A stretch of DNA of 41,025 nucleotides from Candidatus Parcubacteria bacterium (GCA_002869265.1 PKTH01000049.1:1-41025); one strand, 5' to 3'. Shown: positions 141 through 37,170, counted from the first letter of the stretch. Notes: generated by a model from the sequence alone, not told the origin. Numbers and translations are program-made.

Positions 141-530
141 ATGAAAAAATTTAAAATCTACTTACTTGTTCTATTCTTATTTATCCTCCCATTTAGTCTT
201 CTCGCGGGTGAAACTGAATGCCCAACTGATAGCACCTGTATCGACAATCCTATAGACGCAACTAGTCCTGAACAATTCATTGGTAATGTTATTAATGCTG
301 TTTTGGGGATTAGCGGATCTCTGGCTCTCTTGATGTTTGTTTATGGTGGCTTTACTTGGATGCTCTCTGGTGGAAGCCCTGAAAAAGTAAGCAAAGGTAA
401 AAACACTCTTGTCTGGGCAACCATTGGTCTGGTTGTTATATTTTCATCCTACGCTCTTGTCAACTTTGTCTTCACCGGATTAAGTGGGGGAAGCACTACA
501 ACAACTGCCGCCACCACTCCTCCCTCCTAA
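141..530 (+). CDS. Secreted two-TM TrbC/VirB2-like pilin-family protein
   Basis: N-terminal signal peptide, two hydrophobic segments separated by the short W-M-x-x-G-G-x-x-x-K-V loop shared with the other paralogues in the window. Confidence 0.8.
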   Translation: MKKFKIYLLVLFLFILPFSLLAGETECPTDSTCIDNPIDATSPEQFIGNVINAVLGISGSLALLMFVYGGFTWMLSGGSPEKVSKGKNTLVWATIGLVVIFSSYALVNFVFTGLSGGSTTTTAATTPPS

Positions 531-669: not shown

Positions 670-1068
670 ATGAAAGGAAAAATTGCGCTCAATTTAACTA
701 TATTTTTATTTATGCTTTTTAGCATGTCTTTTTTGGCTGGTTCAGTTAATGCTCAGGGAGTAGACGAGATGGTTTGGGGAGGGTATTATGAAGAATTTCA
801 ACTCTCAACAGGGCTTAGCCCCAAAGACCCTAGAGAAATGATAACCGGCCTCATTCGAATTGCTCTGGGCTTTCTAGGGATCTTAGCTGTGACGATCATA
901 ATGTTCGCTGGATTTAAGCTAATGGTTTCAGGTGGAAATGAAGACAATATGGCAAAAGCAAAAGCAATGATGGCCAATGGAGCTGTGGGAATTATAATAG
1001 TTCTAATCTCTTTTTCTCTAGCCAACTTTGTTATTAATTCTATCATTAACGCCACACAAACTATTTAG
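670..1068 (+). CDS. Secreted two-TM TrbC/VirB2-like pilin-family protein
   Basis: Signal peptide; DPREMITGLIRIALGFLGILAV...GGNEDNMAKAKAMMANGAVGIIIV matches the paralogue core. Confidence 0.85.
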   Translation: MKGKIALNLTIFLFMLFSMSFLAGSVNAQGVDEMVWGGYYEEFQLSTGLSPKDPREMITGLIRIALGFLGILAVTIIMFAGFKLMVSGGNEDNMAKAKAMMANGAVGIIIVLISFSLANFVINSIINATQTI

Positions 1069-3436: not shown

Positions 3437-3868
3437 TTAGAACATGCAAGAGAATACAGTCTCTGAGGTTGCGTCTACTATTTTACAAATAACTAAACCA
3501 GAGATTGAATAAGAGGCCATTATAATAACTAGCCCGACTATGCTCCTTGATAATATCTTTTTAGCTTCATCGATTTTTGAATCATTGCCTGCGGCAGTCA
3601 TCCAGAGATACCCAGCGTAAATTATTAAAAATGTAAAGATTACTCCCAAGAAACCAAGGGCTGCTCTTATAAGTTTTGCCACCGTGGCTCTAAGGTCTTG
3701 TGGTTGTCCGCTATCAAATACGTCTGCCACTGCTTCAGAGCCGCCTGCTCCGAATCCTTCTTGGGTGCTAAGAAGACCACCTGCAAAAACAGAACTAGCA
3801 GAAAATAACAACATAATAAATGAGAAAACGAGCAAAAATGACATTATTTTTTGTTTAGCCTTGGTCAT
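3437..3868 (-). CDS. Secreted two-TM TrbC/VirB2-like pilin-family protein
   Basis: Signal peptide; LIRAALGFLGVIFTFLIIYAGYLWMTAAGNDSKIDEAKKIL core. Start MTKAKQK preferred over 3904. Confidence 0.8.
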   Translation of the reverse strand: MTKAKQKIMSFLLVFSFIMLLFSASSVFAGGLLSTQEGFGAGGSEAVADVFDSGQPQDLRATVAKLIRAALGFLGVIFTFLIIYAGYLWMTAAGNDSKIDEAKKILSRSIVGLVIIMASYSISGLVICKIVDATSETVFSCMF

Positions 3869-17455: not shown

Positions 17456-19078
17456 CTATATCTTAGCATATATTGAAGCAACTTGGTCACTATATATTTC
17501 TTCCCAGTCTTCAGATTCCTGGACATGCTCTTTTAAGTGGTTTGTAATATTATTTTCCTTTTCCTCATTCATCATTAAAAAATACTTTTCAAACCAATTA
17601 AAATTTACTTTAGCTTCACTTGTTTTAAGAATAATTAAATTTATTTCATGCTTGGAAAGCATTTCATCAACCTTGGTCTCAATCAAAAAATCTCTATACT
17701 CTTCCAACAAAGAGCGCCCATCATAATTATATTGTGGTAGGCGACCATCTATAAATAATTTCATATCAGGGAGAGTCCAGATAAAATAACCTCCCCAGTT
17801 GTAGTTATTATATATTTTTTTATTTTGCAATTCAGGGTTGTCTGCTAAATATTCTTTAGCACCACAAGGATAACTATTACAATAATATCTAAATGGGTCT
17901 TCAATAAATCTGAATTTTATAGCCTGATTAACTACCAAAAGTGTCACTACAGCAATAACAAAAAACGCTGATATTTTTAGATTAACCTTTTGTCTAAAAA
18001 CGGCTAGGCCCTCCTTTAAAAATTTCAGATGTAAGAAAAAAATGAGGGGAAGGCTAAAGACAAAGAAAAGAGGAAAATGTCTTTTCGATTTTAACGATAA
18101 ATACAAAAACAAGACAAAGATAAAAATCTGCCATGCCTCAATTTTAATATTTGCTTTTTGTTTTTTCCTATAAGATGAAAATACGCTTAAAAAAAACAAA
18201 ACTACAACAGAGCTTGAAACAGCAGCATAAAAAAGCTGTTTATATTTTATGGGGTATCTGTAGAAAGGTAGCCATTCTTTTATGTTCTGCAAATAAAAAT
18301 CATTTGAATATGTTTTTAAAAAGTCATAAAGCCCTATCCCGTAGGGTCCTATAAGAGTGGCAAAAAATGAAAGAATTGAAAAAATTGAAAAAATAAATAT
18401 TTGCTGAGAAGACAAAAGATTTTTGTAATCAAGAAATGAAAGTTTATAGAACTTATAACTAATCATTTCTAAGGTCTTTACAAAAATGAAAAAGATTAAA
18501 AGGACAAGCCCTATCATGAAGCCAGCGTGGACATTGGCCCAAAAAACAAACAAGAAAGGTAAAAAGATTAGCGCCCCAAAAGACTTCTCTACACTATATC
18601 TATCTAAAATTATTAAAAGAATAATAGAGTTCAAAATTGTTATTTCCTGCATTCTAACGCCAAGGTGTGGCAAGCTCGCAAAAACTCCGAGCATTATTAG
18701 TGAAAGTAGCACAATCTTTAAAAGAAAATTACTTTCAAGCTCTGTTTTGAATTTATTCAAAACGAATCTATAGAGCAGATAAAATGCGAAAAGAGCCAAC
18801 AATGCAAATACATGATTTAGAGCAGAGTAGCCCCATTTATCATAAACCAAATAGCTCACTATATTTATCCCCCACTCATGATCAACCCAAGAAACTCCTT
18901 CAAGGGTGTGGTCATAGTGTTCGATTTTCGGAACATTCTTTGTCTCAACCATTTCTTCCCCTACTCTAAGGTGCCAGCCAAGATCAGGGTCAAGATAGCT
19001 TAATCCGTTGTTCAATAGGACAAAAAGAATGAACACCCAATAAACTACCAAAAAAGATTTTTTTATTTTTTTGTTCAT
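17456..19078 (-). CDS. Multi-TM membrane protein, probably a glycan-assembly enzyme (GT-C-like)
   Basis: DPDLGWHLRVGEEM N-terminus, about 11 TM segments, soluble C-terminus with NWGGYFIWTLPDMKLFIDGRLPQY. Confidence 0.6.
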   Translation of the reverse strand: MNKKIKKSFLVVYWVFILFVLLNNGLSYLDPDLGWHLRVGEEMVETKNVPKIEHYDHTLEGVSWVDHEWGINIVSYLVYDKWGYSALNHVFALLALFAFYLLYRFVLNKFKTELESNFLLKIVLLSLIMLGVFASLPHLGVRMQEITILNSIILLIILDRYSVEKSFGALIFLPFLFVFWANVHAGFMIGLVLLIFFIFVKTLEMISYKFYKLSFLDYKNLLSSQQIFIFSIFSILSFFATLIGPYGIGLYDFLKTYSNDFYLQNIKEWLPFYRYPIKYKQLFYAAVSSSVVVLFFLSVFSSYRKKQKANIKIEAWQIFIFVLFLYLSLKSKRHFPLFFVFSLPLIFFLHLKFLKEGLAVFRQKVNLKISAFFVIAVVTLLVVNQAIKFRFIEDPFRYYCNSYPCGAKEYLADNPELQNKKIYNNYNWGGYFIWTLPDMKLFIDGRLPQYNYDGRSLLEEYRDFLIETKVDEMLSKHEINLIILKTSEAKVNFNWFEKYFLMMNEEKENNITNHLKEHVQESEDWEEIYSDQVASIYAKI

Positions 19079-19187: not shown

Positions 19188-19604
19188 ATGAGTAAGTTAA
19201 TTTTAAAAAAGATTGCTACATTAAGTTTTGTACTAATGTTTGTGTTCACAGCTTTTGCTGCTCTGCCAGTAAGCGCTGCAACCAACCTTTCAGACATCGT
19301 TTGGACGGGTGGTGACGGAAACATTGATACAGTTGGTAATGTTACGGGGCTTGGTGAAAGAGACCCTCGTGAAATTGCTGCTGCAGTAATCAAAGTTATG
19401 CTTGGATTCCTTGGAATCATTGCTGTCCTTATTATCCTTTACGCTGGATTCCTATGGATGACTGCTGCTGGGAATGAAGACAAGATCAGTCAAGCAAAAG
19501 GCATGATGTCAGCCGGTGTTATCGGTTTGATTATCATCTTAGCGGCCTTCGGAATTGCGACATTCGTCATGAATGCATTAGTGTCTGCAACAACTGGAGC
19601 CTAA
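19188..19604 (+). CDS. Pilin-family protein, array copy 1
   Basis: Signal peptide, two-TM core; strong SD AAAGGGGGTGA upstream. Confidence 0.88.
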   Translation: MSKLILKKIATLSFVLMFVFTAFAALPVSAATNLSDIVWTGGDGNIDTVGNVTGLGERDPREIAAAVIKVMLGFLGIIAVLIILYAGFLWMTAAGNEDKISQAKGMMSAGVIGLIIILAAFGIATFVMNALVSATTGA

Positions 19605-19629
19605 ATACATTAAAGCTAGTTTTAATATA

Positions 19630-19691
19630 GTGAAAACATTTATTGTTTTCACTACTCTGGGCACAAAGTCTTGTGCTCAGAGTAGTGAAAA
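19630..19691 (+). promoter_or_regulatory. Intergenic RNA element copy A: alternative hairpins GTGAAAAC/GTTTTCAC versus TTTTCACTACTCTG.GCACAA/TTGTGC.CAGAGTAGTGAAAA
   Basis: Direct reading; repeated at 20154-20215. Confidence 0.8.
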
Positions 19692-19718
19692 ATTATTAAA
19701 TAATTAATTTGTAATTCT

Positions 19719-20141
19719 ATGAACAAATTACTAAAAACCGTTTCAAGAAAAACTATTTCTTTGATGGTTTTATTCATGCTTTTGGTGCCAGCATTTTTAT
19801 TTGCTCCAAGCGCTTCAGCTGGAAATATCACAGCCGCTGACCTCTGGGGAGGAAATGATTTCTCACAAAACGCTTTTTATAACGAGACTGGACTAGGCAA
19901 CGCTGACCCTCGTGCTATCGCCGCCTCAGTTATCAAGGTTTTACTTGGATTCCTTGGAATCATTGCTGTCCTTATTATCCTTTACGCTGGATTCCTATGG
20001 ATGACTGCTGCTGGAAATGACGACAAAATATCAACAGCAAAAAGCATGATGTCAGCCGGTGTTATCGGTTTGATTATCATCTTAGCAGCCTTCGGAATCG
20101 CGACATTCGTCATGAATGCTCTAATCACTGCCACTACCTAA
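19719..20141 (+). CDS. Pilin-family protein, array copy 2
   Basis: Near identical to copy 3; signal peptide and two-TM core. Confidence 0.88.
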   Translation: MNKLLKTVSRKTISLMVLFMLLVPAFLFAPSASAGNITAADLWGGNDFSQNAFYNETGLGNADPRAIAASVIKVLLGFLGIIAVLIILYAGFLWMTAAGNDDKISTAKSMMSAGVIGLIIILAAFGIATFVMNALITATT

Positions 20142-20153
20142 ATATTTGAACAG

Positions 20154-20215
20154 GTGAAAACATTTATTGTTTTCACTACTCTGGGCACAAAATCTTGTAC
20201 TCATAGTAGTGAAAA
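20154..20215 (+). promoter_or_regulatory. Intergenic RNA element copy B (degenerate copy of 19630-19691)
   Basis: Same order of segments with a few substitutions in the long stem. Confidence 0.75.
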
Positions 20216-20242
20216 TTTATTTAATAATTAATTTGTAATTCT

Positions 20243-20665
20243 ATGAACAAATTACTACAAACCGTTTCAAAGAAAACTGTTTCTTTGATGGTTTTATTCA
20301 TGCTTTTTGTGCCAGCATTTTTATTTGCTCCAAGCGCTTCAGCAGCGGACATTAATGCTGCAGACCTCTGGGGAGGAAATGATTTCTCTCAAACTGCTTT
20401 TTATAACGAGACTGGACTTGGCAATGCTGACCCTCGTGCTATCGCTGCCTCAGTTATCAAGGTTTTACTTGGATTCCTTGGAATCATTGCTGTCCTTATT
20501 ATCCTCTTTGCTGGTTTCCTCTGGATGACAGCTGCCGGAAATGACGACAAGATCAGTCAAGCGAAAGGCATGATGTCAGCCGGTGTTATCGGTTTGATTA
20601 TCATCTTAGCAGCCTTCGGAATTGCGACATTCGTCATGAATGCTCTAATCACTGCTACTACCTAA
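20243..20665 (+). CDS. Pilin-family protein, array copy 3
   Basis: Near identical to copy 2. Confidence 0.88.
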   Translation: MNKLLQTVSKKTVSLMVLFMLFVPAFLFAPSASAADINAADLWGGNDFSQTAFYNETGLGNADPRAIAASVIKVLLGFLGIIAVLIILFAGFLWMTAAGNDDKISQAKGMMSAGVIGLIIILAAFGIATFVMNALITATT

Positions 20666-20682
20666 ATATTTGAACAAGCTTT

Positions 20683-21108
20683 ATGAAAATAATAACTTCA
20701 AAACTAGCAAGATTTATTTCAATAAGTGTTTTATTGTTTAGTTTACTTCTGCCTAGCCTTTTCTTCGTTCCTAGTGTTTCTGCTGGAGACATTACAGCTG
20801 GAGATCTTTGGGGAGGTGACGACTTTTCACAACAAGATTTTTACGATGAAACTGGACTTGGCAATGCTGACCCTCGTGCTATCGCAGCCTCAGTTATCAA
20901 GGTTCTGCTCGGATTCCTAGGAATCATTGCCGTTCTTATTGTTCTCTACGCTGGCTTCCTCTGGATGACAGCTGCTGGAAATGATGATAAAATATCAAAA
21001 GCAAAAAGCATGATGACAGCGGGCGTTATTGGAATGGTTATCGTCTTGGCAGCCTTTGGAATTGCTACATTCGTTATGAATGCGCTTGTTACAGCAACAA
21101 CCGCTTAA
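20683..21108 (+). CDS. Pilin-family protein, array copy 4
   Basis: DLWGGDDFSQQDFYDETGLGNADPRAIAASVIKVLLGFLGIIAV. Confidence 0.88.
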   Translation: MKIITSKLARFISISVLLFSLLLPSLFFVPSVSAGDITAGDLWGGDDFSQQDFYDETGLGNADPRAIAASVIKVLLGFLGIIAVLIVLYAGFLWMTAAGNDDKISKAKSMMTAGVIGMVIVLAAFGIATFVMNALVTATTA

Positions 21109-21137
21109 AGAATAATTTCTTCAAATAAAACAAAGCT

Positions 21138-21530
21138 ATGAAAAAAATATTTTCCAAAACATTCTTACCTATTTTCATAGCTTTGTTTTTATTTTCCCCT
21201 TTCCTTTCTTTACAAGTTAATGCCACAGCGCTACAAGAGGCGAAAAATAAAATGCAAACCTCAGCCGATACTGCAAAGCTGGCTACAGATGCAGCTAGTT
21301 CTAATATCTCAAGTAAGGTTGGTAGTATTATTGGTATAGTGCTTTCCTTTGTTGGTGTTATTTTCCTAATCCTTATTATTTATGCAGGATTCACTTGGAT
21401 GCTTGCCCGTGGGAACGAATCAGAGGTTCTCAAGGCCAAGAATCTAATGTATGACGCTGTCATAGGTCTAATAATAATAATGGCCGCTTATGCCATCACC
21501 GCCTTTGTTGGCTCTAAAATAGCTAAATAA
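21138..21530 (+). CDS. Pilin-family protein, array copy 5 (divergent)
   Basis: Signal peptide; IYAGFTWMLARGNESEVLKAKNLMYDAVIGLIIIMAAYAITAFV. Confidence 0.85.
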   Translation: MKKIFSKTFLPIFIALFLFSPFLSLQVNATALQEAKNKMQTSADTAKLATDAASSNISSKVGSIIGIVLSFVGVIFLILIIYAGFTWMLARGNESEVLKAKNLMYDAVIGLIIIMAAYAITAFVGSKIAK

Positions 21531-21919
21531 TGTTTTATTTTTCAAAAACGATAACAACTTTTGTTTTTCCTCTTTTTTTGCTTTTGTCATTTCATTCTAC
21601 TCCAACCCTAGCAAAAGAGGCTTTTAATACTAGCTTAAAATCTGCCGGAATTGAGTCTGGTCACATCACCTCAGTGGACACTGCAGACGACAAAGATATT
21701 TACTATTACATATCTGCATCGATAAAAGCTCTTTTAAGTCTTTTAGGCATAGTCTTCCTTGGCTTAATTATCTTTGGAGGTTATACTTGGTTTATGGCCA
21801 GAGGGAACGAAACAGAGGTGGGAAAAGCAAAAGAAACATTATATAGAGCAATTATTGGATTAATCATCCTTTTATCCGCCTATGCAATAACAGCCTTTGT
21901 AGGCACCAAATTGAAATAA
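21530..21919 (+). CDS. Pilin-family protein, array copy 6 (divergent)
   Basis: FGGYTWFMARGNETEVGKAKETLYRAIIGLIILLSAYAITAFV; start overlaps previous stop. Confidence 0.85.
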   Translation: MFYFSKTITTFVFPLFLLLSFHSTPTLAKEAFNTSLKSAGIESGHITSVDTADDKDIYYYISASIKALLSLLGIVFLGLIIFGGYTWFMARGNETEVGKAKETLYRAIIGLIILLSAYAITAFVGTKLK

Positions 21920-21920
21920 T

Positions 21921-22364
21921 ATGAAAATACTAAAAATTCTTATTCTTCTAATTTTCACATTCTCTTTTTTTAATGTACCAGCTGTTCAGGCTCAAAATCT
22001 TCAGGACGCATTCATAACGAGTGGAGGAAGTATTGATATGGAAACTGGAGCAGCAATACCATCACCCATTTATGCTGTTGGTCAAGAAACTGGCTATAAC
22101 ACATCACAAACCATTGAGTCTATATTAGGAAAGGTTATCCTTGCTCTTCTTTCAGTTTTGGGAATTATCTTTTTAATACTTTTAATTTACGCTGGTTTTC
22201 TCTGGATGACCGCAAGTGGCAATGAATCAAAAGTTGATAAGGCCAGATCTATAATGATCACTTCTGTGATCGGCTTAATTATTGTTCTGTCCGCGTATTC
22301 AATCAGCTATTTTGTACTAAGTTCAGTCCAACAAGAAACCCTTCAATCAACCACAGAAAGTTAA
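21921..22364 (+). CDS. Pilin-family protein, array copy 7 (divergent)
   Basis: IYAGFLWMTASGNESKVDKARSIMITSVIGLIIVLSAYSISYFV. Confidence 0.85.
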   Translation: MKILKILILLIFTFSFFNVPAVQAQNLQDAFITSGGSIDMETGAAIPSPIYAVGQETGYNTSQTIESILGKVILALLSVLGIIFLILLIYAGFLWMTASGNESKVDKARSIMITSVIGLIIVLSAYSISYFVLSSVQQETLQSTTES

Positions 22365-22381
22365 ATATTAATAACTTAAAA

Positions 22382-22789
22382 ATGAAAATCTTAAAAAACC
22401 TTTTATTTTCTATATTTTTAATAATCATCTTAACATTGCCCTTCTTAGTATTTGCAAGCCCTAACCCACTTGGTGAAATGAAACAACTAGCAAACGAAGG
22501 TGGATACACCGTCTCTGGAGTTAGCGAAACTACCATGTCTTCTACTATTGGCACTATTGTCCAAGCCTTCCTGGGATTACTCGGAATTATATTTATTATA
22601 TTAATGGTTTGGGCGGGATATAACTGGATGACAGCTGGGGGAAATGAAGACAAGGTTGCAAAAGCTAGAACAACCATCTATAGAGCAATTATTGGCTTAA
22701 TAATAACTACTTCTTCCTATGCCATTTGGAGATTTATTTTTATGAGACTTTTATACAACACGGCTGGAGTGGCAGAAGGCCCAATCTAA
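22382..22789 (+). CDS. Pilin-family protein, array copy 8 (divergent)
   Basis: VWAGYNWMTAGGNEDKVAKARTTIYRAIIGLIITTSSYAIWRFIF. Confidence 0.85.
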   Translation: MKILKNLLFSIFLIIILTLPFLVFASPNPLGEMKQLANEGGYTVSGVSETTMSSTIGTIVQAFLGLLGIIFIILMVWAGYNWMTAGGNEDKVAKARTTIYRAIIGLIITTSSYAIWRFIFMRLLYNTAGVAEGPI

Positions 22790-22793
22790 TTAT

Positions 22794-23177
22794 ATGAAAA
22801 AAATTTATTTACTTGCCATATTGTTGCTTTTGAAAACAGAGGAATCCTTGGCTAGCGGACCGCTAAATAACGCTCTATCTCCTATGATTTCCCAAACAAG
22901 ATCCTTCCAGGAAACTTCTGGTTTTTCAGAAGCTTCACGAACAACACTATCTGACACAATTGCTTCTGTTGTAAGAGTCTTTCTGGGGCTCCTTGGTATC
23001 ATCTTCGTTGTCCTTATTATTTGGTCAGGTTTTAATTGGATGACTGCCGGAGGAAATGAAGACCAGCTTGCAAAAGCTAAAAAAACAATCACCCGAGCCA
23101 TTATTGGGCTTATTATCACTCTTTCAGCTTACGCTATTACATATTTTGTCTTTAATGCCCTCGGTGATGCTACTTAA
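22794..23177 (+). CDS. Pilin-family protein, array copy 9 (divergent)
   Basis: IWSGFNWMTAGGNEDQLAKAKKTITRAIIGLIITLSAYAITYFVF. Confidence 0.85.
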   Translation: MKKIYLLAILLLLKTEESLASGPLNNALSPMISQTRSFQETSGFSEASRTTLSDTIASVVRVFLGLLGIIFVVLIIWSGFNWMTAGGNEDQLAKAKKTITRAIIGLIITLSAYAITYFVFNALGDAT

Positions 23178-24604: not shown

Positions 24605-25270
24605 TTAGCGACGACGGTCTTTTGTGGATTTATCATCCCTCATCATTCCATCAACTCTCTTTAACATTGTTTCAAAATTCTCTTCATCTTTCTTAAAAAC
24701 CTGGCCAACGCTTACTCCAAATTGAAAATCTTTTGGAATGTTGTGTCTTTCACCTAGCCTATAAACTTCTCTTCTTAACCTTTCCAAAAATGAGTCAAGA
24801 TCCTTTTCTAACATCTCTGGCATCAATACTAGAAATTCATCCCCTCCAACCCTGTAAACCTGATCGCCGGGGCGATCAGCTTCACTACTTCTTGTAGTGT
24901 TTTTCAAAAGATCAACAAAATCAACCAAAATTTTATCTCCCTTTGTATGACCAATTTTATCATTCACTAATTTAAATGAATCTAGGTCAAAATATAGAGC
25001 GCAAAGTGGGTGGTTGACTGTGACTGAATGAAAAAACAGAGTCTCTGCATTTTCTTTGAGATATCTTCTATTCCTTGCACCAGTTAGAGGGTCAATGCCA
25101 AGCTCTTTTTCTACACAACATAACTCATTTCTAACTTCTGACATTTTTTCATTATAGTGCTCAGCCAGAGTTCTAATGGTTCTCTTTAGCTCCTTTACTC
25201 GAAAAGAATGGAAAACATACAATAAAACCAAGCACACTCCCAATAAGACGTTTAAATATACAGAAATCAT
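24605..25270 (-). CDS. Membrane-anchored diguanylate cyclase (GGDEF)
   Basis: N-terminal TM; RPGDQVYRVGGDEF with RxxD I-site 5 aa before GGDEF; DPLTGARNRRYL; SD AAAAGGAG. Confidence 0.9.
   Translation of the reverse strand: MISVYLNVLLGVCLVLLYVFHSFRVKELKRTIRTLAEHYNEKMSEVRNELCCVEKELGIDPLTGARNRRYLKENAETLFFHSVTVNHPLCALYFDLDSFKLVNDKIGHTKGDKILVDFVDLLKNTTRSSEADRPGDQVYRVGGDEFLVLMPEMLEKDLDSFLERLRREVYRLGERHNIPKDFQFGVSVGQVFKKDEENFETMLKRVDGMMRDDKSTKDRRR

Positions 25271-35685: not shown

Positions 35686-37170
<1,485 letters not shown>

What the first reader, a model, noticed from the sequence alone, without database searches (positions are those of the whole stretch)
19188..23177. Tandem array of nine secreted two-TM pilin paralogues, plus three more copies elsewhere in the window
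Nine consecutive genes encode signal peptide + variable N-terminus + a core of form G-L-x-G-[IV]-[IL]...[AG]-G-[FY]-x-W-M-x-x-x-G-[ND]-[ED]-x-[KV]-x-x-A-K. Three more copies lie at 141-530, 670-1068 and 3437-3868. TrbC/VirB2-like T4SS pilins in CPR genomes are known as a family, but twelve in 41 kb with no VirB4/VirB6/coupling ATPase in view suggests either interchangeable subunits or a distinct membrane assembly. Copies 1-4 (ADPR/ETGLG type) and 5-9 (divergent, closely packed) look like two sub-arrays that might build a heteromeric structure.
Basis: partly seen in the sequence, partly recalled or inferred. Interest (0 to 1): 0.8.

Follow-up and report, generated by a model that had tools for sequence, protein, structure and literature searches.

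The report
Ordered array of secretion-pilus subunit genes
A tiny, probably host-dependent bacterium carries nine side-by-side genes for related type IV secretion pilus subunits; such arrays are already published, but across related genomes the genes keep a fixed order, and one abundant "main" subunit seems to be followed by rarer fixed ones, which points to a pilus built from several different parts.

Summary
The array is real: nine tandem genes at 19188-23177, plus three more copies in the window. All are secreted two-helix proteins of Pfam family PF18895 (T4SS_pilin); one scores 0.4 bits under the cut-off. The window is a whole contig (C34) of a fragmented patescibacterial genome with 19 hits, probably 18 genes.

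Such arrays are published: 441 arrays of 2-11 genes in Patescibacteria (PMC12102498). The Saccharibacteria array is essential (PMC10633639). So this is a new member of a known kind.

Beyond those papers as read here:
1. Gene order is conserved. A variable block of "head" genes (c1-c4) precedes fixed slots c5-c9 (319 concordant vs 59 discordant pairs in 26 arrays; 0 of 20,000 permutations).
2. Copies c1-c3 have codon usage like ribosomal proteins; c5-c9 do not. This recurs in the congener and, by a simpler measure, in 25 other genomes.
3. Long spacers after head genes carry strong stem-loops (25/35 vs 4/39 after tail genes and 14/56 controls).
4. 96 of 101 genomes of the order encode relatives of a large protein starting with a pilin domain.

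Best reading: a heteromeric VirB2-like pilus with major and minor subunits. No filament has been seen.

The parts
19188..19604 (+). c1: head-type pilin, orthologue in congener; codon usage like ribosomal genes; strong Shine-Dalgarno-like AAGGGGGTGA upstream
19628..19693 (+). intercistronic stem-loop element between c1 and c2 (two hairpins sharing the arm TTTTCAC)
   Evidence: fold z -6.96 for the spacer; congener element keeps pairing with 3 two-sided changes; not repeated elsewhere in the genome
19719..20141 (+). c2: head-type pilin, highest codon-bias score of the set
20153..20216 (+). second copy of the stem-loop element, between c2 and c3
   Evidence: spacer fold z -4.72; 94% identical to the first copy
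20243..20665 (+). c3: head-type pilin, 92% identical to c2 (dN/dS about 0.2)
20683..21108 (+). c4: head-type pilin, 75% identical to c2
21138..21530 (+). c5: tail slot 5 pilin
21530..21919 (+). c6: tail slot 6 pilin, start overlaps the c5 stop
21921..22364 (+). c7: tail slot 7 pilin
22382..22789 (+). c8: tail slot 8 pilin
22794..23177 (+). c9: tail slot 9 pilin; also just above NF045849 cut-off
141..530 (+). S1: stand-alone pilin, the only copy also above the TrbC (PF04956) cut-off; orthologue in congener
670..1068 (+). S2: stand-alone pilin, nearest to head type; orthologue in congener
3437..3868 (-). S3: stand-alone pilin; orthologue in congener in the same neighbourhood

Best explanation
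The twelve genes encode VirB2/TrbC-type pilins of the chromosomal type IV secretion system that most Patescibacteria carry. Each protein has a signal peptide, a short variable mature N-terminus predicted to face outward, and two membrane helices joined by a short loop. In the array, c1-c4 are one lineage-expanded major subunit made in large amounts, and c5-c9 are five differentiated minor subunits made in smaller amounts. All would be inserted in the membrane and, driven by the VirB4 ATPase, assembled into one heteromeric pilus or channel that contacts the host cell. Hairpins in the spacers behind head genes would raise the head:tail ratio, by protecting the upstream message or by partial termination. 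Two conserved giant proteins that begin with the same pilin domain (fusA, fusB on contig C37) would be incorporated at the tip or base as adhesins. Shown by sequence: family, array, T4SS genes elsewhere, slot order, codon bias, spacer structure, conservation of the giants. Inferred: topology, assembly, stoichiometry, tip role, host contact.
For: Family: PF18895 in all copies, TrbC for S1. Signal helix plus a helical hairpin predicted for c2, pLDDT 81, residues 64-96 and 101-139. VirB4 and PrgI in the genome. Pilin-VirB4 link in a small, hand-picked set: of 4 pilin-less genomes 2 lack VirB4 and 1 has only a sub-cut-off hit, while all 10 pilin-bearing ones have it. Slot orthology with the congener for every locus. 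Collinear order in 26 other arrays, 319 vs 59 pairs, 0/20,000 permutations; tail slots alone 128 vs 37, 0/20,000. Codon scores: c1-c3 0.08-0.12, above all 26 background genes, tail -0.06 to -0.15; congener c1, c2 0.11, 0.10 and tail -0.05 to -0.16; C-ending codons higher in head than tail in 19/25 other arrays, p = 7e-4. Strong spacer structure: head 25/35, tail 4/39, control 14/56. Congener spacer keeps the stem with three two-sided changes. Giants: 96/101 genomes of the order have a relative of fusB. The pilin array in a cultured relative is essential (PMC10633639).
Against: No filament of this kind has been reported for Patescibacteria in the papers read. The fold search against PDB found no significant match, including no VirB2 or TraA pilin, and the sequence profile found none, so membership of the pilin fold rests on Pfam profiles. 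Slot assignment is by best BLAST hit to two reference genomes; the 26 arrays were found with a head-type query and are related to each other. Outside the class the slots are not resolved. Codon bias can reflect composition as well as expression. VirB6 was not identified by any profile.
Confidence: 0.6

Rival explanations
1. Interchangeable or antigenically varying pilins: the paralogues are alternatives, expressed or recombined to suit different hosts, as proposed for multi-copy VirB2 in Bartonella and Anaplasma and suggested for Patescibacteria in PMC12102498.
For: Variable mature N-termini; recent duplication c2/c3 (92% identity); number of head copies differs between genomes, 1 to about 8.
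Against: Each locus keeps an orthologue in the congener and slot order is conserved between genera, which free exchange would scramble. dN/dS between c2, c3, c4 is about 0.13-0.22 and between c1 and c2 or c3 0.3-0.5, all below 1. No invertible promoters or silent cassettes were seen, though none were specifically searched for.
Confidence: 0.15
2. Not a pilus: the two-helix domain is a membrane scaffold or channel ring belonging to the T4SS or to a separate envelope structure, and never extends as a filament.
For: Gram-positive conjugation systems generally lack pili (PMC12102498, PMC10633639); no fold match to solved pilins; the same domain anchors 650- and 1880-aa surface proteins; many single dispersed copies.
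Against: Codon bias of c1-c3 at the level of ribosomal proteins fits a bulk polymer better than a ring; S1 scores above the TrbC pilin cut-off.
Confidence: 0.2
3. The array is only redundant dosage: copies are kept to make more of the same subunit, with drift producing the differences.
For: c2-c4 are close copies and c2, c3 have high-expression codons.
Against: c5-c9 are 33-48% identical to each other, conserved in order and at background codon bias.
Confidence: 0.05

Closest known systems
Patescibacteria VirB2-like pilin arrays (PMC12102498)
   Same: PF18895 pilins in tandem arrays of 2-11, beside a chromosomal MPF-FATA-like T4SS with VirB4 and PrgI
   Different: Here 9 in the array and about 18 in the genome; c2/c3 are 92% identical although the paper gives 54% as the maximum within an array; array is not beside virB4. 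Slot order, codon bias, spacer stem-loops and giant pilin-headed proteins did not come up in the parts of the paper I read
Ca. Southlakia epibionticum T4SS pilin cluster (PMC10633639; six pilins according to PMC12857230)
   Same: Series of divergent pilins with a Gram-positive-type T4SS; there shown essential by transposon sequencing
Bartonella Trw and Anaplasma VirB2 paralogue arrays (described in PMC12102498 and PMC12857230)
   Same: Tandem VirB2 copies with sequence variation
   Different: Those are read as antigenic variation in diderm systems; here order and identity of slots are conserved between genera
Mbov_0395 family pilin-like conjugal transfer protein (NF045849, Mycoplasma ICE)
   Same: All ten copies scanned match the profile at E 1e-5 to 1e-10
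   Different: Only c9 passes the curated cut-off, by 0.5 bits

Membership tests
PF18895 T4SS_pilin | score above the curated family cut-off | tested here: met
   Above 26.6 bits for eleven of twelve as proteins, 26.2 for c2; every window copy above it in the six-frame search
VirB2/TrbC pilin (PF04956) | score above the curated cut-off | tested here: inconclusive
   Met by S1 only, 35.5 vs 27.9 bits; c9, c8, S3 and c6 match below the cut-off
VirB2/TrbC pilin (PF04956) | signal peptide followed by two membrane helices joined by a short loop | tested here: met
   Sequence and AlphaFold model of c2, helices 2-27, 64-96, 101-139; topology itself not tested
VirB2/TrbC pilin (PF04956) | fold match to solved VirB2-type pilin structures | tested here: inconclusive
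   No PDB match at E <= 0.001. A single two-helix hairpin carries little fold signal, so the absence is weak evidence
VirB2/TrbC pilin (PF04956) | assembly into an extracellular filament | not testable with these tools
   Needs microscopy or proteomics
Patescibacteria T4SS (MPF-FATA-like) | VirB4 and PrgI/VirB3 in the genome | tested here: met
   C41 VirB4 P-loop_TraG 95.6 bits; PrgI 29.9 vs 27
Patescibacteria T4SS (MPF-FATA-like) | VirB6 homologue | tested here: inconclusive
   An 829-aa hydrophobic protein precedes PrgI-VirB4 but matches no Pfam family
Patescibacteria T4SS (MPF-FATA-like) | coupling protein | tested here: inconclusive
   Weak PF02534 hit on C19, 25 vs 20.1 bits, partial
Published Patescibacteria pilin arrays | 2 or more PF18895/VirB2 genes in tandem | tested here: met
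   Nine in tandem

The most novel reading that the evidence does not exclude
Patescibacteria of this order build a multi-part T4SS pilus: one abundant major pilin plus five ancient, order-conserved minor pilins and giant pilin-headed proteins at its tip or base. Structured spacers in the mRNA, conserved in architecture rather than sequence, set the subunit ratio. VirB2-type pili are otherwise treated as single-pilin polymers, so this would be a new architecture for conjugation-type pili.
Probability: 0.35. Interest if true: 0.8.

Novelty: new member of a known kind. Interest (0 to 1): 0.5.

Why it matters
The T4SS of Patescibacteria is essential for epibiotic growth in the one tested species, and why it has several pilins is open. 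A fixed slot order with a codon-marked major subunit turns "multiple copies" into a testable parts list. It gives named genes to delete, subunit ratios to measure, and candidate tip proteins (fusA, fusB) for host recognition. It also speaks against host-driven antigenic variation as the default explanation.

Tried and rejected
Missing VirB4 as a clue to a different machine: rejected, it is on contig C41. Stem-loop as a genome-wide repeat: rejected, only the array copies match well in either congener genome; a weak double match on C37 proved to lie inside another gene. Stem-loop as an Rfam family: no Rfam match in the array. Stem-loop as a simple terminator: not clear-cut; by a loose criterion 10 of 25 strong head spacers have a T-rich tail, no less often than controls, and the scan found no terminator-like site in the c1-c2 or c2-c3 spacer. 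A strict search for the shared-arm double hairpin found 7 of 38 head spacers, 0 of 45 tail and 4 of 61 control, so the general claim rests on overall fold strength. The cut-off z < -3.5 was chosen after looking; my first comparison, 26/55 vs 3/134, was inflated because tail spacers are short, so I redid it on spacers of 35 bases or more. Phylum-wide slot assignment failed, identities are too low. AlphaFold of fusB failed, pLDDT 34 with four sequences. PDB fold and sequence searches gave nothing significant.

Full report
WHAT WAS CLAIMED AND WHAT IS THERE. All twelve ORFs exist as stated. All match Pfam PF18895 T4SS_pilin; eleven are above the cut-off as proteins and c2 is 0.4 bits under it. 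S1 (141-530) also passes PF04956 TrbC/VirB2, and c9 passes NF045849. The window is an entire contig, C34, of a 1.27 Mb genome in 49 contigs. The best protein relatives of the array are Falkowbacteria, Uhrbacteria and Magasanikbacteria, so the source is a patescibacterium, probably of class ABY1; its own name is not shown.

THE REST OF THE GENOME. It holds 19 PF18895 hits. Two, at the ends of C41 and C32, look like one gene broken between contigs (the congener has an intact pair there), so I count 18 genes: nine in the array, S1-S3, one each on C12 and C16, a pair on C32, and two giants on C37 of 650 and 1880 aa that begin with a pilin domain and continue with Ig-like or fibronectin III domains. 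Contig C41 encodes VirB4 (P-loop_TraG, 8e-28), an N-terminal VirB4-like piece, PrgI and an 829-aa hydrophobic protein in the place where VirB6 would be expected. A weak coupling-protein hit lies on C19.

HOW COMMON. All 103 genomes searched in the order have PF18895, 3 to 20 hits each; this genome's 19 is near the top. In the phylum 139 of 143 do. Of four genomes without it, two lack VirB4 and one has only a sub-cut-off VirB4 hit, whereas ten pilin-bearing genomes all have VirB4; this is a small, hand-picked set.

WHAT IS PUBLISHED. Quinonero-Coronel et al. 2025 (PMC12102498) report 441 VirB2 arrays of 2-11 genes in 383 Patescibacteria assemblies, mean identity 25% and maximum 54%, and suggest host adaptation. 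Wang et al. 2023 (PMC10633639) found the T4SS with its series of pilins essential in a saccharibacterium; a review gives six pilins (PMC12857230). The array is therefore a new member of a known kind.

FIXED SLOTS. Every pilin locus of this genome has a best-matching, mostly syntenic counterpart in the only other genome of the genus. There the array has seven genes: c1, c2, c5-c9, so c2-c4 reflect expansion of one slot here; the congener contig begins just before its array, so an upstream gene could be missing. In 26 arrays from other genomes, genes assigned by best hit to slots run head, c5, (c6), c7, c8, c9: 319 concordant and 59 discordant pairs, more extreme than any of 20,000 within-array shuffles; without the head genes 128 and 37, again 0 of 20,000. 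Caveats: slots were assigned by BLAST to two genomes, c6 is rarely called, the arrays were retrieved with a head-type query, and they are related by descent, so the permutation count is not a calibrated probability. In other classes arrays exist but slots cannot be told apart.

MAJOR VERSUS MINOR. A codon score trained on eight ribosomal and related genes puts c2, c1 and c3 (0.124, 0.085, 0.080) above all 26 ordinary genes of the window; c4 is intermediate (-0.028), c5-c9 are -0.055 to -0.151. In the congener c1 and c2 score 0.113 and 0.099, c5-c9 -0.05 to -0.16. By a simpler measure, the share of C-ending codons, head genes exceed tail genes in 19 of 25 other arrays (Wilcoxon p = 7e-4). This fits an abundant major subunit and scarcer minor ones; it is inference from codons, not a measurement.

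STRUCTURED SPACERS. Spacers after head genes are long (median 74 bases) and after tail genes short (median 9). Among spacers of 35 bases or more, strong folding (z < -3.5) is found in 25 of 35 after head genes, 4 of 39 after tail genes and 14 of 56 control spacers (Fisher p = 1.5e-5 against controls). Here the c1-c2 and c2-c3 spacers fold at z -7.0 and -4.7. The congener keeps the 21-pair stem with three two-sided changes; with only three sequences, 26 of 500 shuffles reach this. In this genus two hairpins share one arm. The element is confined to the array and matches no Rfam family. Message stabilisation or partial termination favouring the upstream gene is the likeliest role, as in other operons with unequal subunit needs (from general knowledge, for example puf and pap).

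GIANTS. 96 of 101 genomes of the order encode a relative of the 650-aa protein, in many followed by a second pilin-domain protein with an open frame of roughly 1,700-3,000 aa. I found no description of them in the papers searched. They are plausible tip or base subunits; their function is untested.

MECHANISM. Best reading: T4SS-linked heteromeric VirB2-like pilus, c1-c4 major, c5-c9 minor, ratio set partly by the spacers, giants as adhesins (0.6). Rivals: non-filamentous membrane scaffold (0.2), interchangeable host-variation pilins (0.15), mere dosage (0.05). dN/dS of about 0.13-0.5 among head copies shows purifying selection overall, and conserved slots speak against free variation. The AlphaFold model of c2 (pLDDT 81) shows a signal helix and a two-helix hairpin, but no solved pilin was matched, so the fold comparison neither proves nor excludes the pilus.

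Noticed in passing
G000 contig C37:115987-118341 (L023:2747-10342, - strand): Two adjacent giant proteins (650 and 1880 aa) begin with a signal peptide and T4SS_pilin domain and continue with Ig-like or fibronectin III domains; a relative of the smaller one is in 96 of 101 genomes of the order.
   Followed up: partly
window 35686-37170 and following: A 16S rRNA gene is followed by tRNA-Ile and several further tRNAs, but no 23S rRNA was found in the remaining 3.9 kb of the contig: the rRNA genes may be unlinked.
   Followed up: no
window 17456-19078 (- strand): A 540-aa membrane protein without any Pfam match lies divergently next to the array, and a relative sits in the same place upstream of the array in at least six other genomes (L037, L042, L044, L045, L046, L052).
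   Followed up: partly
L060 (Magasanikbacteria SP4150) and L034: 16 and 13 pilin-domain ORFs found in about 12 kb and 7 kb, more than the 11 per array given as maximum in PMC12102498.
   Followed up: no
G167:C1:86515-86718: A pilin domain inside a 3312-aa open frame in another genome of the class.
   Followed up: no
window 24605-25270: A GGDEF-type protein by sequence look, next to trpS in both congeners, notable in a 1.27 Mb genome.
   Followed up: no
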